Of a DNA stretch of 39,979 nucleotides, positions 1 through 34,700 are shown one piece after another. A program made the translations under genes and the position numbers. The DNA lies in NCBI GenBank assembly GCA_000310025.1, contig FN649751.1, positions 2,146,944 through 2,186,922 on the forward strand, written 5' to 3'. The notes beneath the pieces were generated by a model. It searched no databases, was not told where the DNA came from, and saw nothing but the letters and a program-made list of their open reading frames with translations. The first letter of the stretch is position 1, and the number at the start of each line of letters is the position of its first letter. This stretch comes from Ectocarpus siliculosus. Lineage: Eukaryota; Sar; Phaeophyceae; Ectocarpales; Ectocarpaceae.

Positions 1-600
1 GTTTTCAGGAGGGTTTCCCCTTCACTCAGAATTATTTCTTTTGGGCCGGGGGGGTGTTTGTTGGGGGCCCCCCAGAAAGAAATTTAATTGGGGTTGTTAG
101 GGGGGGGTTGGAGCGGTCCCCCCATCAAATAATTTTTTTTTTTCGGAAAAGGGTTATTTTGGGGGTTGGGGACCCCCCCCCCCCCCCCGGTGCCCCAAAA
201 AAAAGGGGGTTAAACCTTCTTTTTTTTTTTTTTGGTTCCACCCCCGCCAGAAAAATTCCCCCCCCGGGCCCCCCCCCTTGTTTTTGGTTCCTTTACCCGG
301 GAACCCCCCCCCATTTGGGAATTTCCCCGGGTTATTTTTGGGCAAACTTCAGGGACAACACTTTTTTTTGCGCGCCCCCTTCCCCCACAAATTCCCCTTC
401 TTCCCGGGGTTCCCTTGGTTCCCCATTTTCTTGTTATTCTTATTCTTCTTCTTCTTCATTTCTTAATATTATTATTGTTATTATTCTTACTTAATATTTT
501 CTTCTTGGGGAAAACCCGGGGGGGGTTTCCCGACCCCACCCCCCCCCCCCAAAAGGGAGGTTTACCGGGGGGGGGGGGGGGGGGGGGTACTCATAGCCGT
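1..600. other. Homopolymer-rich, probably low-quality assembly end
   Basis: The stretch is dominated by long runs of G, C, T and A (for example C runs at about 173-188 and 538-550 and a G run at about 568-587) in a pattern unlike the rest of the window. Open frames here encode only Pro/Phe/Gly-rich low-complexity peptides. It resembles an unpolished contig end or poor base calls rather than real biology. No gene is supported. Confidence 0.6.
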
Positions 601-27792: not shown

Positions 27793-27794
27793 TA

Positions 27795-27817
27795 CAGAAC
27801 CGGCCCGCACTTAAGAA
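27795..27817 (+). repeat. Left terminal inverted repeat
   Basis: 23 bp, identical to the reverse complement of 31,928-31,950, directly preceded by the TA target dinucleotide. Confidence 0.95.
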
Positions 27818-28025
27818 CCTCTTATTTGGAGCGAGGCTCGCTTCTTGTTGGCTGCCCCAAGCGGAGCTCAAGTTCTTATTTGCCAGGTTCTTATTTCGTC
27901 GTCAAGTTGTCTCCAGAAACGGTGTTCTTGTTCTTATTTCATCATCGATTGCTCAATTGGTGCACTACTCAACTGCACTCGAGGCAGAGTTTCATACCCG
28001 CAAACTCCCCCCCATGGGGCAACTG

Positions 28026-31000
28026 TCAACCGTCTTGGTCCACAAGAGTGACGTTGGGGGTGCGTACCCTTCCCGCCCTACTGACGCTCTCAAGCAAAAC
28101 CCATGAGCCTACCGCCGCGTCCGGATCTCCGCTGTACTTGTCTAAGGGCAGCTTCATCTTGCGCGTACTGTGGTCTACTTCCAGCTGCACACAGTAGTCG
28201 TACAGGTGGCGCTGCGGAGATTGCTGAATGATCAACCCACCGAACCACCCCATGCCCAGCCGAACAAGCACTCCACGTTGCAAAAGCAATCTGTCAAGAG
28301 CAGCGGGGGTAAATTCTTGAAGGCGAAAGCCCGCCGGGATCTCCATTCCCTGCGTCTCGTCCTCCGGGTCGTCTGGGTCCATGCTGTCGTCCTCGTCCAA
28401 AAGAGCTAGCTCGTCGGTCTGGGATTGAGACATGTCTGCGACGAAGGGTACCGTGAAACACGAGAAGGAACGTACGGGTGTCATCGCCGTTACTCAACTG
28501 AAGTGAACACACCATTTGTTCGTAGACGTGACGCGGAAACAGAATATCAGCAATATCCCAAACAGCACAAGGAAAGATGAACAAAAAGGACAATGAATTA
28601 ACTGTAGTCTATGTAGTGCCAATCAAACTTACTGTCGTCGTCTTCATCGCTGTATCCAGCGCCCTCCATGCCCTCCCCGCTGTTGGCACCGTTGCGCTCA
28701 TCCCCGACGACCGGCTCGCGCCTTCCGGCGCCCTCCTCCTCCTTCCCCTCGGGCCCATCGCTGCCGTCCTCCGAACCTCCTTCGTTCTCGCTGGAGTCTT
28801 CATCGTTTGCGAAGGTGTACGGCTGGTCCAAACCCTCCAAGGTGATTCGATCATCGCCTGAGCCGTCCACGGTCATCGCCATCCCGCACTTTTCGAAAAG
28901 GCGGTGTCGGTACCCCTGATTGCTGTTGAGTTTTTCCATGGCCGCTCCCGCCCATTGAGTGATCAGTACGCGCCGGTCAGAAGCTGTCAGCGACGCGGTT
29001 TCCCACCTCTCGATGTTGTCCGACTGATCGAGCCACTTGTCCATCTCGTTGCCAACTTCCACCTTGAGAAATCGTCCGGCTCCTGCATCAACTGGCTGCA
29101 CCTCGTCCGTGCACTCCGCAGGGCCAAGCCAGGCGAGAGTGTTGCACTGCTTCGCAAGATACCCCTTGAACTCGTCCGTGGTCTGCGCGTGCAAGTTGTC
29201 CATTATCAGAATGGACCTCGCCTTGGGGAGCTCACCCCGCCCGCGGATCAGGCCTTCGCGGTACGACCTCTTGGCCCACTCCATGCAGAACTTTTGGTCC
29301 GCCCACGCATTCTGCTGGAAAAACACGTCCACGTCCTTGTGGTACGCGGCCTTCTCCACCGGCGAAATCCGCTTCCCCTGGCCTCGGAAAATCACCGAAA
29401 TCCGCATAGTCTTCTCACCCGGACCAAAGATTACTTGCATGGTGCACTGCCTTTTCTCTAGGCCAGCAAAGGGCTGCGAGATGGCTACACGCAACGCGCC
29501 TGTTTTTTCCCACGTGCTGATCAGCCCGTTCACGAATGGCAAAGGCACTTGATCCACATTCCAACGCTCCCAGAGCTGGAACTGACCGTACTTGGGATCT
29601 CTGGACTCTCCCTCCGCGACCGTCGACATCGCCGACACGTCCGATGCCTCGGGTGCCCTGTACCGTACCGGCTCTTGCAGGAGCTTGCGAAACCGCCGGT
29701 GGAAGCGCTGGATCTTTGGTAGGCGCTCTTCAACAGACTTGTTCTTGAGGTTGCTCCTGCGCCGTTTGGACAGCTTATGCCTCTTTGCCCATTTTCGTGC
29801 CCACCTGAAGGACGCGCTGAACGCCGCCGCCCGTTGGTCCTCAGGGTGATTCTCTTGCACGAGCTTCCGGAAGGTGACCGTCAGCCACAGGGTCGACACC
29901 TTCAGCTTCCTCCTCCGCCGCGCCAAGAACATATTGTACAGCTTCTTCTCTTCCTCAGGAAACCACCGCTTTGGCTGCTGTTTGGCAAGGAGGGTCTTCT
30001 TCACGTAATCTGCTGCCGATTGGACTATATTGGCCTCGTCCTGAGCCCACTTCACGATCAGGCTGTAGTTAACCTTGAGACGGTCCTCTAAGTACTGGAG
30101 AGGCGTGAGCTTCTCCTCCTTGAAGAGGTCTGCGGCGTCTTCCTGGAGGAGGCGCAGCTGGGTCACAACATGGGCTTTGAACCTGTAGTCGTATCGCTTG
30201 CGCTTCACAGCTCCACGAGTCTCCTTGACTTTGCGGTCCGTAAAGCCGTCGCTTTCCAAGTCGAGATCGCGGAAGCGCTTCCGTTGGAGGACAAACGAAG
30301 CCGCCCCCCTGGCACCATCGACCTTCACGTGCCAACAACGTCCAGGCCCGGCTTCTTCCCACGGCTGAACATGCCCTTTGGGAGTCTTCCCCAGCATCCG
30401 CTGCAGCCGCAAGCCGTTGGACATGTTTGCATTGCTGTGCTGTGTTTTCACGTGGATCCCAAGTCCTTGCTCGTTCACGAAGGTCATGGGACAGTGAGTG
30501 CACGGTAGGCGCCGCTCTGGGGCCGGAGGTGGGAAGTTGATGCCCGACACATGCTCTGTGACACCACCGCGAGTCCGCTCAATCTGCACGGCGCGGTAGG
30601 AGAAGGGCGGAATTGAAGTGCAGGTGATTCAACGAGCTGTGGACCTGAAATTGCGTGGATGTCGATGGCAAAATATATAAATCTATGCAGATGGGGCGGG
30701 GGGTGATTACATGACCGTCTCTCGTGTGTTTGTATCACGGTGCTGCAAAAAAAAGGTTACAAAATACGGTTGGGACGGCGCTCGTGTACGCGTTCTTTTT
30801 CGCCACTGTGTCTACTGTGCCGTCCTTGCCTTCCTCAAAAACGTGAGGCAAACGGAGAATATTTGAAAAAGTTGTACACATACATATACGCCATGCTGAA
30901 AGTCAGTCGTTTACACCAACCTGTGACAGAGTAGTTTTTCTCTCGATTTTTCATTTCATCACCACCGCGTTCTTTTTTAAACAACAGCAGCAGCAGGAGC

Positions 31001-31557
31001 ACTCTTGCTGTATCTACACTACATACATACAGCGGCTGGACCGCCGTACGACTGCTGTATATATGTACATCATCACAGCAACAGAGTTGTCAGACGACTG
31101 AACTCACCGGTTTTCCGCTGCCACGAGCGAACGCGTTGATGATGTTCCCACCTAGAACACCTTGGGCAGCTCGATTCCTGGCTTGCTTCCCCCGATCTGC
31201 GACCTTTCTCTTCCCGGCAGCCGCAGCAGTAGCAGGCGGTGGGTGCGAAGACGGTGCACCTCGCGCGCCGCCCGCATCTTGTGGCGTTAAAAACGACGGA
31301 CGGGTGCTGGTGGAAATACCCTGGGCCTCTCCATCAATCTGCGTGATCCACTCTTCTTCGTTGAATACACCCGTCTGCTTCAGCCCCCATGCGTTCTCGA
31401 TTGCGTCCCATCGCTCCTTCGCAACGGAGTTGCCCGCCTTCACATGTGCCTTTATCGTCTCGAAGTGACGGTCAAGAATCAGTCCTCGTTGTTTCAACTC
31501 CGAGAGTTTGCCAAGGTCCTTCAACAACCCATGGGATAGGGGGTTGGACAGGGACAT
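28026..31557 (-). CDS. DDE (pogo-like) transposase with C2H2 finger
   Basis: Exons 31557-31108, 30583-28633 and 28435-28026 (450+1,951+410 nt) are phase-consistent with strong splice sites (CCG|GTGAGT, GTGCAG, ACA|GTAAGT, GTCGCAG). They give about 936 residues. Exon 1 starts MSLSNPLSHGLLKDLGKL; KLSELKQRGLILDRHFETIK resembles a SHOCT-type helical hairpin. Exon 2 has a C2H2 finger (178-199, CTHCPMTF...HVKTQH), a basic region likely to form helix-turn-helix DNA-binding domains (about 270-440), and a DDE_1-like catalytic core with candidate Asp494 (NVDQVPLPF), Asp612 (LIMDNLHAQT) and Asp649 (EVQPVDAG), the last two 37 apart. An acidic tail leads to exon 3, whose GVLVRLGMGWFGG, YDYCVQLEVDHSTRKMKLPL and GSWVLLE are periodic like a small beta-barrel (Tudor/Agenet-like; inference). 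It would cut at the inverted repeats and insert at TA. No frameshift or internal stop was seen. Confidence 0.9.
31015..31075. repeat. Short imperfect hairpin in transposase intron 1
   Basis: CTACATACATACAGCGGC is followed by a short loop and by GACTGCTGTATATATGTAC, forming an imperfect stem with the ACTGCTGTA motif in its right arm. Its role is unknown. Confidence 0.5.
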
Positions 31558-31927
31558 GATCCCCCTGCACGGCAGGCAACTCGTGGCACGCTGCACCGCG
31601 TTGCGTGGTAAAAAAAAAAACTCGCTGGCACGGGACACGACGTGTATGAACAGCAGACCCCCACCTAAAAAAAAAATCTAAAAGTCTAGGTAGGTACCAA
31701 CTACCTAGCAAAAAAACCTGGGAACGCCCCCCCCCCCCTCCTCCTCCATCTGTGTATGTTCTTCTCTCGCCACCGCCGCGTCATGTCGTATGTTCTTATC
31801 TGTTGCACCAGTCGTACACCTCACTGGAGGTTCTTATTCTTAACAGCAGGTCCGATCTGAGCACGTGTTCTTACGGGCAAATTCTTAAAAATTGGATTTT
31901 TTGAGGCTCAAATTCTTAACGTCCATA

Positions 31928-31950
31928 TTCTTAAGTGCGGGCCGGTTCTG
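31928..31950 (-). repeat. Right terminal inverted repeat
   Basis: 23 bp, perfect inverse of 27,795-27,817, followed by TA. Further TTCTTA hexamers lie just inside. Confidence 0.95.
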
Positions 31951-32079
31951 TACTGCTCTAGACTCTAGACTACTGCTCCACCACTCCTTCACTCCACCAC
32001 GCCACCCCTACAATGCATAGAAGTACAACCCTAAAAAACGTCCTTTTCATCGGTCGTTCGGAATGATTTAGTGAGGGCT

Positions 32080-34500
32080 GGGGGGGAGAGGGGGGGCATG
32101 AGGGAGCTGGGAGTCGCACGGCGGGCTTGAATTTTATGTCATGCAGCTACAGTACCTTTGCAAGAGGGAAGTATTGTACATTGCGTACAGGCCAGTAGTT
32201 TCCCGACGTGCGAGACACTACGTGGCATGGACTATCTTTTTCTCCCACTCGTCTTCTTGACTCTCTGGATCGCCTTTTTTGCGCCATCACTCAACACCTG
32301 CTTCGCCATCTTCACCCTCTCCTCATCTTCTTTTTCACCTCGGTTGCCTGATAGAAGACCAAACTACATAGTGAAACAGCGCCAGCAAAGCGGTGTAGGT
32401 ATTCGCCACGTTGACTGGCGTCCTCCACTTTTTCTTCCTGGTAACACTCACAAAAGGCTGCCGATTTCGTTATTCTTGTTCCGGCCACGACAAACCCGAG
32501 GCTTCGAATGCCGTCGCTGTTATGACAGCTTTCTTCAACGCGGATAGGAGGTTGTGAGCGGTCAAGGTGGATCTTAAGCCAGCTGAATACACCCGGAACA
32601 AGAATTGCGCCCGGAAATCGCCACCCTTGTGTGTGTAGCCAGAAAGAAACAGAGGGCGGGGTGTGGGATGAGTGAGACAGTACCATCAAATATTTTCATT
32701 TCAGCAGTACAATCTAACAGTCCACCAAACTCGCCAGTGGACCATACCCGTTCGGGTTCAGAGGCGAAATCTTCGATATTTACTGAAGATTACTCATCAT
32801 CTCATCTTGTTTTTCGTTTTGCGGGGACCTTGCCCAAGCACTGTCAACGCCGAAGTGTGTAGGGTAGAAGACAGCGTCACCTCTTCCTGGCTACATCACA
32901 AATGACTGGTGATTTCCGGGTGCCATTGTTCTTGTTCGAGGCGTCTTGGCTGCGTTACCAGTCCCCTTGACCTCACACCTCGTCCTGCGCACCGTGTAGC
33001 GAGTAGCCGTAGCGGCGACGTCATTGGAAACCTCGGCTGTTGTCGCGGCGACAGGCAACAAATGTCGAGGCTTTCAATGCCGTCACTGCTGCGGCAGCCA
33101 GCCTCAAGGCAGACAGGGTATTCCAAGAGGTCAAGGTGACTCGTTTAGCCAGCCGGATCGCTCGGAACAAGACAAATGGCGCTCGGAAACCGCCACCCCA
33201 TTGTGAGAGTAACCAGAAAGGAGTAGAGGAAGGGATGTGGGATGGGTGGGACAATAGGTGCCTTAGGCAATCAAATATTTTTACTCCAACAGTGCGTTCA
33301 GGTATGTGAAACATATCTAACAGCCCATCCAAACTCGCCAGTGGACCATACCCATTCGGGTTCAGAGGCGAAACCTACTCATCTCATCTTGTTTTTCGTT
33401 TTTGGTGGACCTGCCCAAAACATTTTCAGCGACGACGTGTGTGGGGTGGAAGGCAGCGCCACCGCTTCCTGGATACATTCACAATCGGCTGGTGACGCCG
33501 CCATTGTTCTTGTTCCGGGTGTATTCGGCGGCCTTACCAGCCACCTTGACCTCACTCAACGCCCTGTCCGCTTGAGAGAACTGTCGTAGCGGCGACGTCA
33601 TTGGAAGCCTCGGCTTTTGTCGCGGCGACACAAAAAAACGAGGCAACAAATGTCGAGGCTTTCAATGCTGTCACTGCTTCGACAGTCAGCCACAAGGCGG
33701 ACAGGGTGCTGCATGAGGTCAAGGTGGTTCGTTTAGCCAGCCGATTACGCCCGGAACAAAACGAATGACGCTCGGAAATCGCCACCCATTTGAGTGTAAC
33801 CAGAAAGGAGTAGAGGAAGGGATGTGGGATGGGTGGGACCACAGGTGTCTTGGCTTATCAAATCGTTTCACTGCAACAGTGCGTTCAGATATGTGAAACA
33901 AATCTATATATAATAGTCCATCTCCAAACTCGCCAGTAGACCATACCCGTTCGGGTTCAGAGGCGAAATCTTCGATATTTACTGAAAATTACTCTCATCC
34001 CATCTTGTTTTTTCGTTTTTGGTGGACCTGCCCCAAAATGTTTTCAACGACGACGTGTGTCGGGTGGAAGGCAGCGCCACCTCTTCCGAGTTAGACTCAC
34101 AATCGGCTGGTCGTTTTCCAGATGTCATTGTTCTTGTTCGGGGCGTATTCGGCTGCCTTACCAGCCACCTTGGCCGCACACAACGCCCTGTCCGCTTGAG
34201 AGAACTGTCGTAGCAGCGACGTCATTGGAAGCCTCGGCTTTTGTCGTGGCGACAAATGTCGAGGCAACAAACGTGGAGGTTTCCAATGCTATCGCTGCTC
34301 CGCAGGTCTTTGAAGCGGACAGGGCGTTGTGTGAGGTCAAGGTGGCTCTTGAGGCATCCGAAAAAGCCCCGAACAAGACGAATGGCGTCCGGAAATCACC
34401 AGCCAATTGTGAGTGAAACCAGAAAGGAGTAGAGGACGGAATGTAGGATGAGTGGGACAGTAGGCATCTTGGCTGTTCAAATATTTCACTTGAACAGTGC
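32080..34500. repeat. Tandem array of about 570-615-bp units, at least some foldback
   Basis: Four head-to-tail units have boundaries near 32,640, 33,205, 33,799 and 34,415, marked by a recurring ACCAGAAAGGAGTAGAGG block, then GTGCGTTCAG (units 3 on), AACTCGCCAGT and TTCGGGTTCAGAGGCGAAA. The first unit is the most degraded. Inside the later units, two arms of about 140 bp face each other around a TGTCG(C/T)GGCGACA centre. In unit 34,100-34,412 both arms contain AAGCGGACAGGGCGTTGTGTG and end at an outward GTGAGT splice-donor-like sequence. The arms read as an exon-like peptide (ADRALCEVKVALEAS, then APNKTNGVRKSP). Frames are broken between arms and units, so this is a repeat rather than a gene. 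Confidence 0.8.
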
Positions 34501-34502
34501 GT

Positions 34503-34700
34503 TCAGCCGAAAGAACACACCTGAGAAAGTATTGGACCTTGAACACGACAAAGAGCCACAGGTCCAATCGAAAAACTAATATCAAAATTATGCCGAAGGA
34601 AGTCTGAAAAGGACCATGGCTGAACAATGGAATTCATGCCGAAAGAACACACGCGACAAAGTATTGAACCTTGAACACGAAACACAGCCACAGGCAGCAG
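34503..34700 (+). repeat. Tandem duplication, unit about 132 bp
   Basis: The block GCCGAAAGAACACAC...AAAGTATTG(G/A)ACCTTGAACACGA...AGCCACAGG occurs at about 34,505-34,562 and again at about 34,637-34,696. It adjoins the end of the foldback array. Confidence 0.75.

What the first reader, a model, noticed from the sequence alone, without database searches (positions are those of the whole stretch)
27795..31950. Intact pogo/Tc1-type transposon with TA duplication, 23-bp inverted repeats and a three-exon transposase
Both ends, the target duplication and a full-length open transposase are preserved, so the copy may be recent and active. The transposase has extra modules for the family: a SHOCT-like N-terminal exon, a C2H2 finger and a separate C-terminal exon.
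Basis: partly seen in the sequence, partly recalled or inferred. Interest (0 to 1): 0.75.

Follow-up and report, generated by a model that had tools for sequence, protein, structure and literature searches.

The report
Recent pogo-type transposon of brown alga
A complete "jumping gene" of a known broad class sits in what is probably a brown-alga genome, together with near-identical sister copies and small dependants; its enzyme carries extra conserved parts, but as a kind of element it is not new.

Summary
Window 27795-31950 is a 4,156-bp transposon with perfect 23-bp inverted repeats flanked by TA, and a three-exon 936-aa transposase on the minus strand. Relatives in the same genome support its exons, splice sites and purifying selection. 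Three other full-length copies are 99.3-99.8% identical to it and each other; ten 1.8-kb deleted copies share both ends. Paralogs of one full-length copy without the element carry one TA (8 of 8 fit one TA better), so TA is duplicated; of four other sites one is clean, one suggestive, two off by 2-3 bp. DDE_1 domain, DD36D triad and C2H2 finger make it pogo-type, closest in description to the published Mover family; no tree could be made. The SHOCT label is not supported. The N- and C-terminal exons are real and conserved, fold unknown. New here: TAAGAA/TTCTTA arrays beside both ends, shared by relatives. Activity is unproven: this copy has Tyr343 where 7 of 7 family rows are acidic. Ectocarpus mariner-type families are already catalogued; whether this is one could not be checked.

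The parts
27793..27794 (.). left TA (target duplication)
   Evidence: duplication shown at other copies
27795..27817 (+). left 23-bp terminal inverted repeat CAGAACCGGCCCGCACTTAAGAA
   Evidence: genome copies
27873..27936 (+). left subterminal motif copies TTCTTA (3)
28026..28435 (-). exon 3 of the transposase (136 aa counting the split codon, plus stop); conserved C-terminal module of unknown fold
   Evidence: fold not resolved
28436..28632 (-). intron 2 (197 nt, GTAAGT..GCAG); the other three full-length copies carry an extra 65-66 bp here
28633..30583 (-). exon 2: C2H2 finger, putative helix-turn-helix, catalytic domain, acidic tail
28985..29419 (-). Pfam DDE_1 match (38.5 bits, cut-off 22)
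29087..29089 (-). third catalytic Asp, D649 (Asn in the C2 copy)
29198..29200 (-). second catalytic Asp, D612 (36 residues between it and D649)
29552..29554 (-). first catalytic Asp, D494 (NVDQ), just outside the Pfam match; one search printed this position one too low
29762..29962 (-). weak HTH_Tnp_Tc5 match (17.8 bits, below cut-off 22.2)
30437..30502 (-). C2H2 finger C-x2-C-x12-H-x4-H
30584..31107 (-). intron 1 (524 nt, GTGAGT..GCAG)
31108..31557 (-). exon 1 of the transposase (150 aa), conserved N-terminal module, no known family found
31793..31918 (+). right subterminal motif copies TTCTTA (6)
31928..31950 (-). right 23-bp terminal inverted repeat
31951..31952 (.). right TA (target duplication)

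Best explanation
It is a recently mobile, probably autonomous cut-and-paste DNA transposon of the pogo superfamily. Its spliced transposase is inferred to recognise the inverted repeats and the clustered TAAGAA/TTCTTA motifs beside them through the finger and helix-turn-helix regions, to cut with a D-D-D (DD36D) RNase-H-like active site, and to insert at TA, which is duplicated. The same transposase lineage is inferred to drive internally deleted 1.8- and 2.9-kb copies and short MITEs with matching ends. Shown by sequence: ends, TA duplication, gene structure, triad, copies, deletion derivatives, motif arrays. Inferred: binding roles of the modules, mobilisation in trans, present activity.
For: Perfect inverted repeats. 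DDE_1 above cut-off. Triad: D494 in 3 of 3, D612 in 4 of 5 and D649 in 5 of 5 family rows. In the regional alignment, D612 and D649 stand opposite Asp in the other 11 DDE_1 proteins of the genome that were fetched, and D494 in the 6 of 11 that cover it. Four full-length copies 99.29-99.76% identical over aligned bases. Ten 1.8-kb copies 99.12-99.84% identical to each other, with both ends. One TA at uninserted paralogs of C155 (8 of 8 fit better) and of one MITE. Exons 1 and 3 conserved in divergent relatives, dN/dS 0.35-0.37 and 0.20-0.39. Splice signals: donor 1 in 3 of 3, acceptor 1 in 8 of 9, donor 2 in 7 of 9, acceptor 2 in 7 of 7 rows shown. Motif: 9 copies in the subterminal 314 bp of the window element against 0.22 expected (0 of 500 shuffles reach it) and 0 in the 3,796 bp inside; 6, 7, 8 and 8 copies in four related elements. 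The C2 copy has a premature stop and Asn for D649, yet keeps perfect ends: this fits mobilisation in trans but could equally be damage after insertion.
Against: Two of five informative empty sites depart from a simple TA duplication by 2 and 3 bp, and a third (C13b) is ambiguous. The window copy has a private Tyr343 at an otherwise acidic position. Within the family one row (C54) has Gly for D612 and the most divergent one (C36) has 35 instead of 36 residues between the last two Asp (counted by eye). Helix-turn-helix and finger matches are below Pfam cut-offs. The structure models are too poor to confirm the fold. No expression or excision data.
Confidence: 0.9

Rival explanations
1. The window copy is itself inactive and was moved in trans, or was damaged after insertion, although its frame is open.
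For: Tyr343 where 7 of 7 other family rows examined have Asp or Glu; a defective C2 copy shows that dead copies keep perfect ends.
Against: No stop, no lost catalytic residue, splice sites intact. Its shorter intron 2 resembles the 1.8-kb copies, which lack about 49 of the extra 65 bp, so it need not be damage.
Confidence: 0.3
2. It belongs to the Tc1/mariner superfamily proper, not to pogo.
For: The TA target is shared with Tc1/mariner (PMC7386202, section 8). Foldseek's top two hits for the poor exon-2 model are Mos1 and Metnase (E 0.035 and 0.063, not significant). A published Ectocarpus catalogue has a Mariner-Tc1 class and does not use the word pogo in its main text (PMC12477816).
Against: DDE_1 match above cut-off, with Asp as third catalytic residue. 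That DDE_1 marks pogo-type and DDE_3 marks Tc1/mariner proper is recalled, not tested.
Confidence: 0.07
3. The gene is a domesticated host gene and the inverted repeats are relics.
For: Long, spliced gene under purifying selection.
Against: Several near-identical copies at unrelated sites with ends and a duplicated TA.
Confidence: 0.01
4. TA is part of the element's ends and insertion makes no target duplication.
For: C2a (5 of 5 fetched paralogs aligned, 2 of them scored) and C13a (1 of 1) fit a joined site without the extra TA better; so does the DNA alignment of C13b, by 2 points in 5 of 5 comparisons.
Against: C155 paralogs (8 of 8 fit one TA better), the exact MITE paralog, and the protein alignment around C13b.
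Confidence: 0.05

Closest known systems
Mover family of the pogo superfamily (Gao et al. 2020, PMC7386202; abstract, sections 6 and 8 and passages read)
   Same: DD36D spacing; TA target duplication; no DNA-binding domain that reaches the hmmscan cut-off; known from stramenopiles, a red alga and a rhizarian; inverted repeats of at most 40 bp, as in most pogo families
   Different: The text read names no conserved N-terminal or C-terminal exon, finger or subterminal arrays for Mover. Sequence relatedness to Mover could not be tested. DD36D is not unique: Tigger spans 29-36, Lemi 29-42, and four Fot-like elements have 36.
TcMar-2_Ec32 and its MITE TcMar-N1_Ec32 of Ectocarpus (Dinatale et al. 2025, PMC12477816; abstract, section 15 and passages read)
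   Same: Autonomous element of about 4 kb with more numerous short non-autonomous relatives in a brown alga; transposase with an added N-terminal domain
   Different: TcMar-2 carries an EsV-1-7 domain; none was found in this transposase (exon 2 at E<=1; exons 1 and 3 at E<=10). Whether this element is one of the other 15 of the 17 families of that catalogue (for example TcMar-1_Ec32) could not be checked; supplements were not available.
Passer family of the pogo superfamily (PMC7386202, sections 6 and 8)
   Same: Present in stramenopiles; TA target duplication
   Different: Almost all Passer are DD35D with BrkDBD and/or HTH_Tnp_Tc5; here DD36D and only a sub-threshold HTH_Tnp_Tc5 match

Membership tests
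pogo superfamily | DDE_1-type catalytic domain with D-D-D triad | tested here: met
   DDE_1 38.5 bits against cut-off 22; D494, D612, D649; exceptions in the family: Gly for D612 in C54, Asn for D649 in the C2 copy
pogo superfamily | TA (or TAA/TAAA) target-site duplication | tested here: met
   Single TA at uninserted paralogs: MITE; C155; C13b ambiguous; C2a and C13a off by 2-3 bp
pogo superfamily | terminal inverted repeats | tested here: met
   23 bp perfect
pogo superfamily | N-terminal helix-turn-helix DNA-binding domain | tested here: inconclusive
   HTH_Tnp_Tc5 17.8 bits, below 22.2
pogo superfamily | groups with pogo transposases in a tree | not testable with these tools
   no reference eukaryote transposases on hand
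Mover family | DD36D | tested here: met
   36 residues between D612 and D649; relative C36 appears to have 35
Mover family | DNA-binding domain not detected by hmmscan | tested here: met
   no DNA-binding family above its cut-off
Mover family | well-supported clade with known Mover transposases | not testable with these tools
   reference sequences are in a supplement that could not be read
TcMar-2_Ec32 | N-terminal EsV-1-7 domain | tested here: not met
   no PF19114 match in exon 2 (E<=1) or exons 1 and 3 (E<=10), although the genome holds at least 150 such domains
SHOCT domain (exon 1) | match to a known family | tested here: not met
   0 Pfam families at E<=10 in 3 of 3 members; 0 NCBIfam; HMMER filters can lose weak short matches

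The most novel reading that the evidence does not exclude
A distinct pogo family of brown algae. Its transposase is a fixed four-part protein (conserved N-terminal exon, C2H2 finger, DD36D core, C-terminal exon that may form an SH3-like/Tudor-like barrel), and its ends work as asymmetric arrays of TAAGAA/TTCTTA sites, six at the 5' end and three in the opposite sense at the 3' end. The C-terminal module may read chromatin and bias insertion.
Probability: 0.25. Interest if true: 0.5.

Novelty: new variant of a known kind. Interest (0 to 1): 0.35.

Why it matters
A copy with intact ends, an open spliced transposase, natural deletion derivatives and, for sister copies, demonstrable empty sites is a ready starting point for testing transposition in a brown alga. 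The two conserved extra exons pose a clear question about what they add to a pogo transposase. As a kind of element it is ordinary.

Tried and rejected
Looked for close relatives of the exon-2 protein in viral contigs: 3 stretches matched a peptide pattern, none encodes a relative. AlphaFold2 models of exon 2 (mean pLDDT 40.5) and exon 3 (46.0) are too poor to use. Their PDB searches gave no match at E<=0.001; the 50 rows shown for exon 3 include SH3-like, Tudor, PWWP and chromodomain chains at E about 0.4-1, mixed with unrelated folds, which is no more than a hint. PDB sequence searches: exon 2 matched only single fingers of CTCF and Kaiso at E 0.05-0.8, exon 3 nothing below E 0.4, exon 1 nothing. 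Rejected: SHOCT for exon 1; MIX for exon 3 (E 0.014-0.02, below cut-off); domesticated gene; TA as part of the element. The flank of copy C134 lies at a dispersed repeat but the site is rearranged and uninformative. The first alignment with the other DDE_1 proteins (A3) did not line up the first Asp; only the regional realignment did. A tree against pogo, Fot, Tigger and Tc1 references could not be made. Strains and sister species could not be compared. Literature: eight searches; no paper held pogo+transposase+zinc finger+SHOCT or Ectocarpus+transposon+SHOCT. Papers opened: PMC7386202, PMC12477816 (as stated above) and PMC7325037 (abstract and passages).
Full report
What is there. The window is G000:C26:2146944-2186922 of a 189-Mb, 492-contig genome. 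At window 27795-31950 lies an element with perfect 23-bp inverted repeats, 25 bp with the flanking TA. The host is probably a brown alga of the Ectocarpus type: 150 of 150 EsV-1-7 matches returned are over the cut-off (880 candidates, 150 scored), against none in 14 control genomes; a paper states that this domain has proliferated in brown algae (PMC12477816, passage read). The host name is an inference.

Gene. On the minus strand three exons (31557-31108, 30583-28633, 28435-28026) give 936 aa without a stop. The model is not just a long frame. Exon 1 is found in order upstream of exon-2 relatives in C16, C472, C29, C4 and C54, in the last two about 4 kb away. Splice signals are kept: donor 1 in 3 of 3 rows, acceptor 1 in 8 of 9 (C36 lacks AG at that place), donor 2 visible in 7 of 9, acceptor 2 in 7 of 7. 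dN/dS of the window gene against divergent copies is 0.27-0.32 for exon 2 (C4, C18, C29, C54, C472), 0.35-0.37 for exon 1 (C472, C16) and 0.20-0.29 for exon 3 (C4, C5, C12, C18, C29, C54, C472). C5, C12 and C16, which carry stops, give 0.42-0.51 in exon 2, and C16 0.39 in exon 3; C9 gives 0.29 in exon 2. C36 gives 0.18 and 0.10, but its silent sites are saturated. Close copies with few changes scatter widely (0.07 to 1.87); the 1.8-kb copies give 0.70-1.75 in exon 2. These are simple Nei-Gojobori estimates from local alignments; overlapping pieces were counted twice in some rows (for example C54 exon 2, 708 codons).

Domains. Pfam finds DDE_1 above its cut-off, and C2H2 and HTH_Tnp_Tc5 matches below theirs. 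The finger's C-C-H-H ligands are kept in 5 of 5 family rows that cover them, and also in the most divergent relative C36. The triad is D494-D612-D649 with 36 residues between the last two (D612, D649 and the spacing, which printed the first Asp one place too low; D494). Family rows keep D494 in 3 of 3, D612 in 4 of 5 (C54 has Gly) and D649 in 5 of 5; the C2 copy has Asn for D649, and C36 appears to have 35 residues between the last two. In one search, D612 and D649 stand opposite Asp in 11 of 11 other DDE_1 proteins fetched from the genome, and D494 in the 6 of 11 that cover it. The genome search lists 94 DDE_1 matches, this family included. Exon 1 has no Pfam match at E<=10 and no PDB sequence match, so the SHOCT label is not supported. 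Exon 3 has no significant Pfam or PDB match, and its model is of low confidence.

Copies. Four full-length copies (C26 = window, C134, C155, C2) are 99.29-99.76% identical over aligned bases, gaps left out. Three of four are open; C2 has a stop at codon 358 and Asn for D649, and an insertion of roughly 430 bp between exon 1 and the right end. Two 2.9-kb copies (C199, C408) share identical 90-bp flanks and count as one site. Ten 1.8-kb copies are 99.12-99.84% identical to one another; six of them compared are 93-94% identical to the full copies and are internal deletions of a sister element. The window copy lacks 65-66 bp of intron 2 that the other three carry; the 1.8-kb copies lack about 49 bp of it, so the longer form may be the derived one.

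Target. TA flanks all 16 complete copies, but the search pattern contained TA, so this alone proves nothing. Empty sites: the full-length copy C155 lies in a dispersed repeat; 9 listed rows span the joined site, 8 were fetched, and 8 of 8 fit one TA better than none, 6 of 8 exactly. A MITE at C23:2256413 has one 92%-identical paralog with one TA. The 1.8-kb copy C13b sits in a decayed sister transposase gene: the protein alignment across the site is better with one TA (30.0 against 26.6 bits), but only three codons lie on the left and the DNA alignment favours no TA by 2 points in 5 of 5 comparisons, so it is suggestive at most. Against: copy C2a has one more TA than 5 of 5 fetched paralogs (of 38 listed), and copy C13a has 3 more bases than its single paralog. 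I read these two as earlier differences or small footprints; that is inference. The window copy's own flanks are unique.

Ends. The inner part of the repeat (TTAAGAA) is repeated beside it. In the 180-bp ends minus the inverted repeats, TAAGAA in either orientation occurs 9 times in the window element (0.22 expected, 0 of 500 shuffles reach it) and not at all in the 3,796 bp between. Counts in nine related elements: C472 6, C12 7, 1.8-kb 8, 2.9-kb 8, MITEs 6, 4, 2, 1 and 1. The last two are not above chance (76 and 101 of 500 shuffles reach them), and the one with 2 is reached by 4 of 500. Inner parts hold 0-2 copies. In 10 of 10 elements all copies run the same way along the element (trivially so in the two MITEs with one copy), so in the window element the 5' end has copies in the sense of its repeat and the 3' end in the opposite sense. 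A degenerate end pattern TACAGNNNNNGCCCGCACTTAAGAA has 133 genome matches against 0 for the reversed control (not every match is listed), with three common variants of the inner five bases among those listed. That these motifs bind transposase is an inference.

Mechanism and placing. Cut-and-paste transposition at TA by a pogo-type transposase is the reading that best fits ends, triad, duplication, copies and deletion derivatives together. The published Mover family (DD36D, stramenopiles, no detectable DNA-binding domain; PMC7386202, sections 6 and 8 read) is the closest description. Membership needs a tree that I could not make. The Ectocarpus catalogue (PMC12477816) lists 17 Mariner-Tc1 families, most copies non-autonomous, and one transposase with an added EsV-1-7 domain. 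This element lacks that domain, and its identity with one of the other families could not be checked. No relative was found in viral contigs by a search that reaches close relatives only.

Verdict. A real, complete, recently amplified element of a known kind, with an unusual but conserved protein architecture and striking subterminal arrays. Present activity is possible and untested, and the window copy carries one suspicious residue, Tyr343.

Noticed in passing
window 32400-34560: Just right of the element: a diverged array of about 600-bp units (start-to-start spacing mostly 570-625 bp; several segments also occur inverted). Not identified.
   Followed up: partly
window 1-600: Very homopolymer-rich, irregular sequence with a TTCTTATTA-like array at 428-489; may be low-quality assembly. 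No end of this transposon family was found there with up to 9 mismatches.
   Followed up: partly
G000:C2:1117217-1121862: Near-identical full-length copy with a premature stop, loss of the third catalytic Asp and a roughly 430-bp insertion, but perfect ends: either moved in trans or damaged after insertion.
   Followed up: yes
G000:C13:2873903-2875724: A 1.8-kb derivative inserted inside the C-terminal coding part of a decayed sister transposase gene.
   Followed up: yes
G000, 94 DDE_1 matches: The genome holds at least two other, more numerous DDE_1 transposase groups; counted by eye in the sequences, the D-D spacing is about 31 in one and about 35 in the other.
   Followed up: partly
G000:C30:1878821-1878934: A 38-residue match to the transposase lies in an open frame reported as 7,146 aa long.
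   Followed up: no
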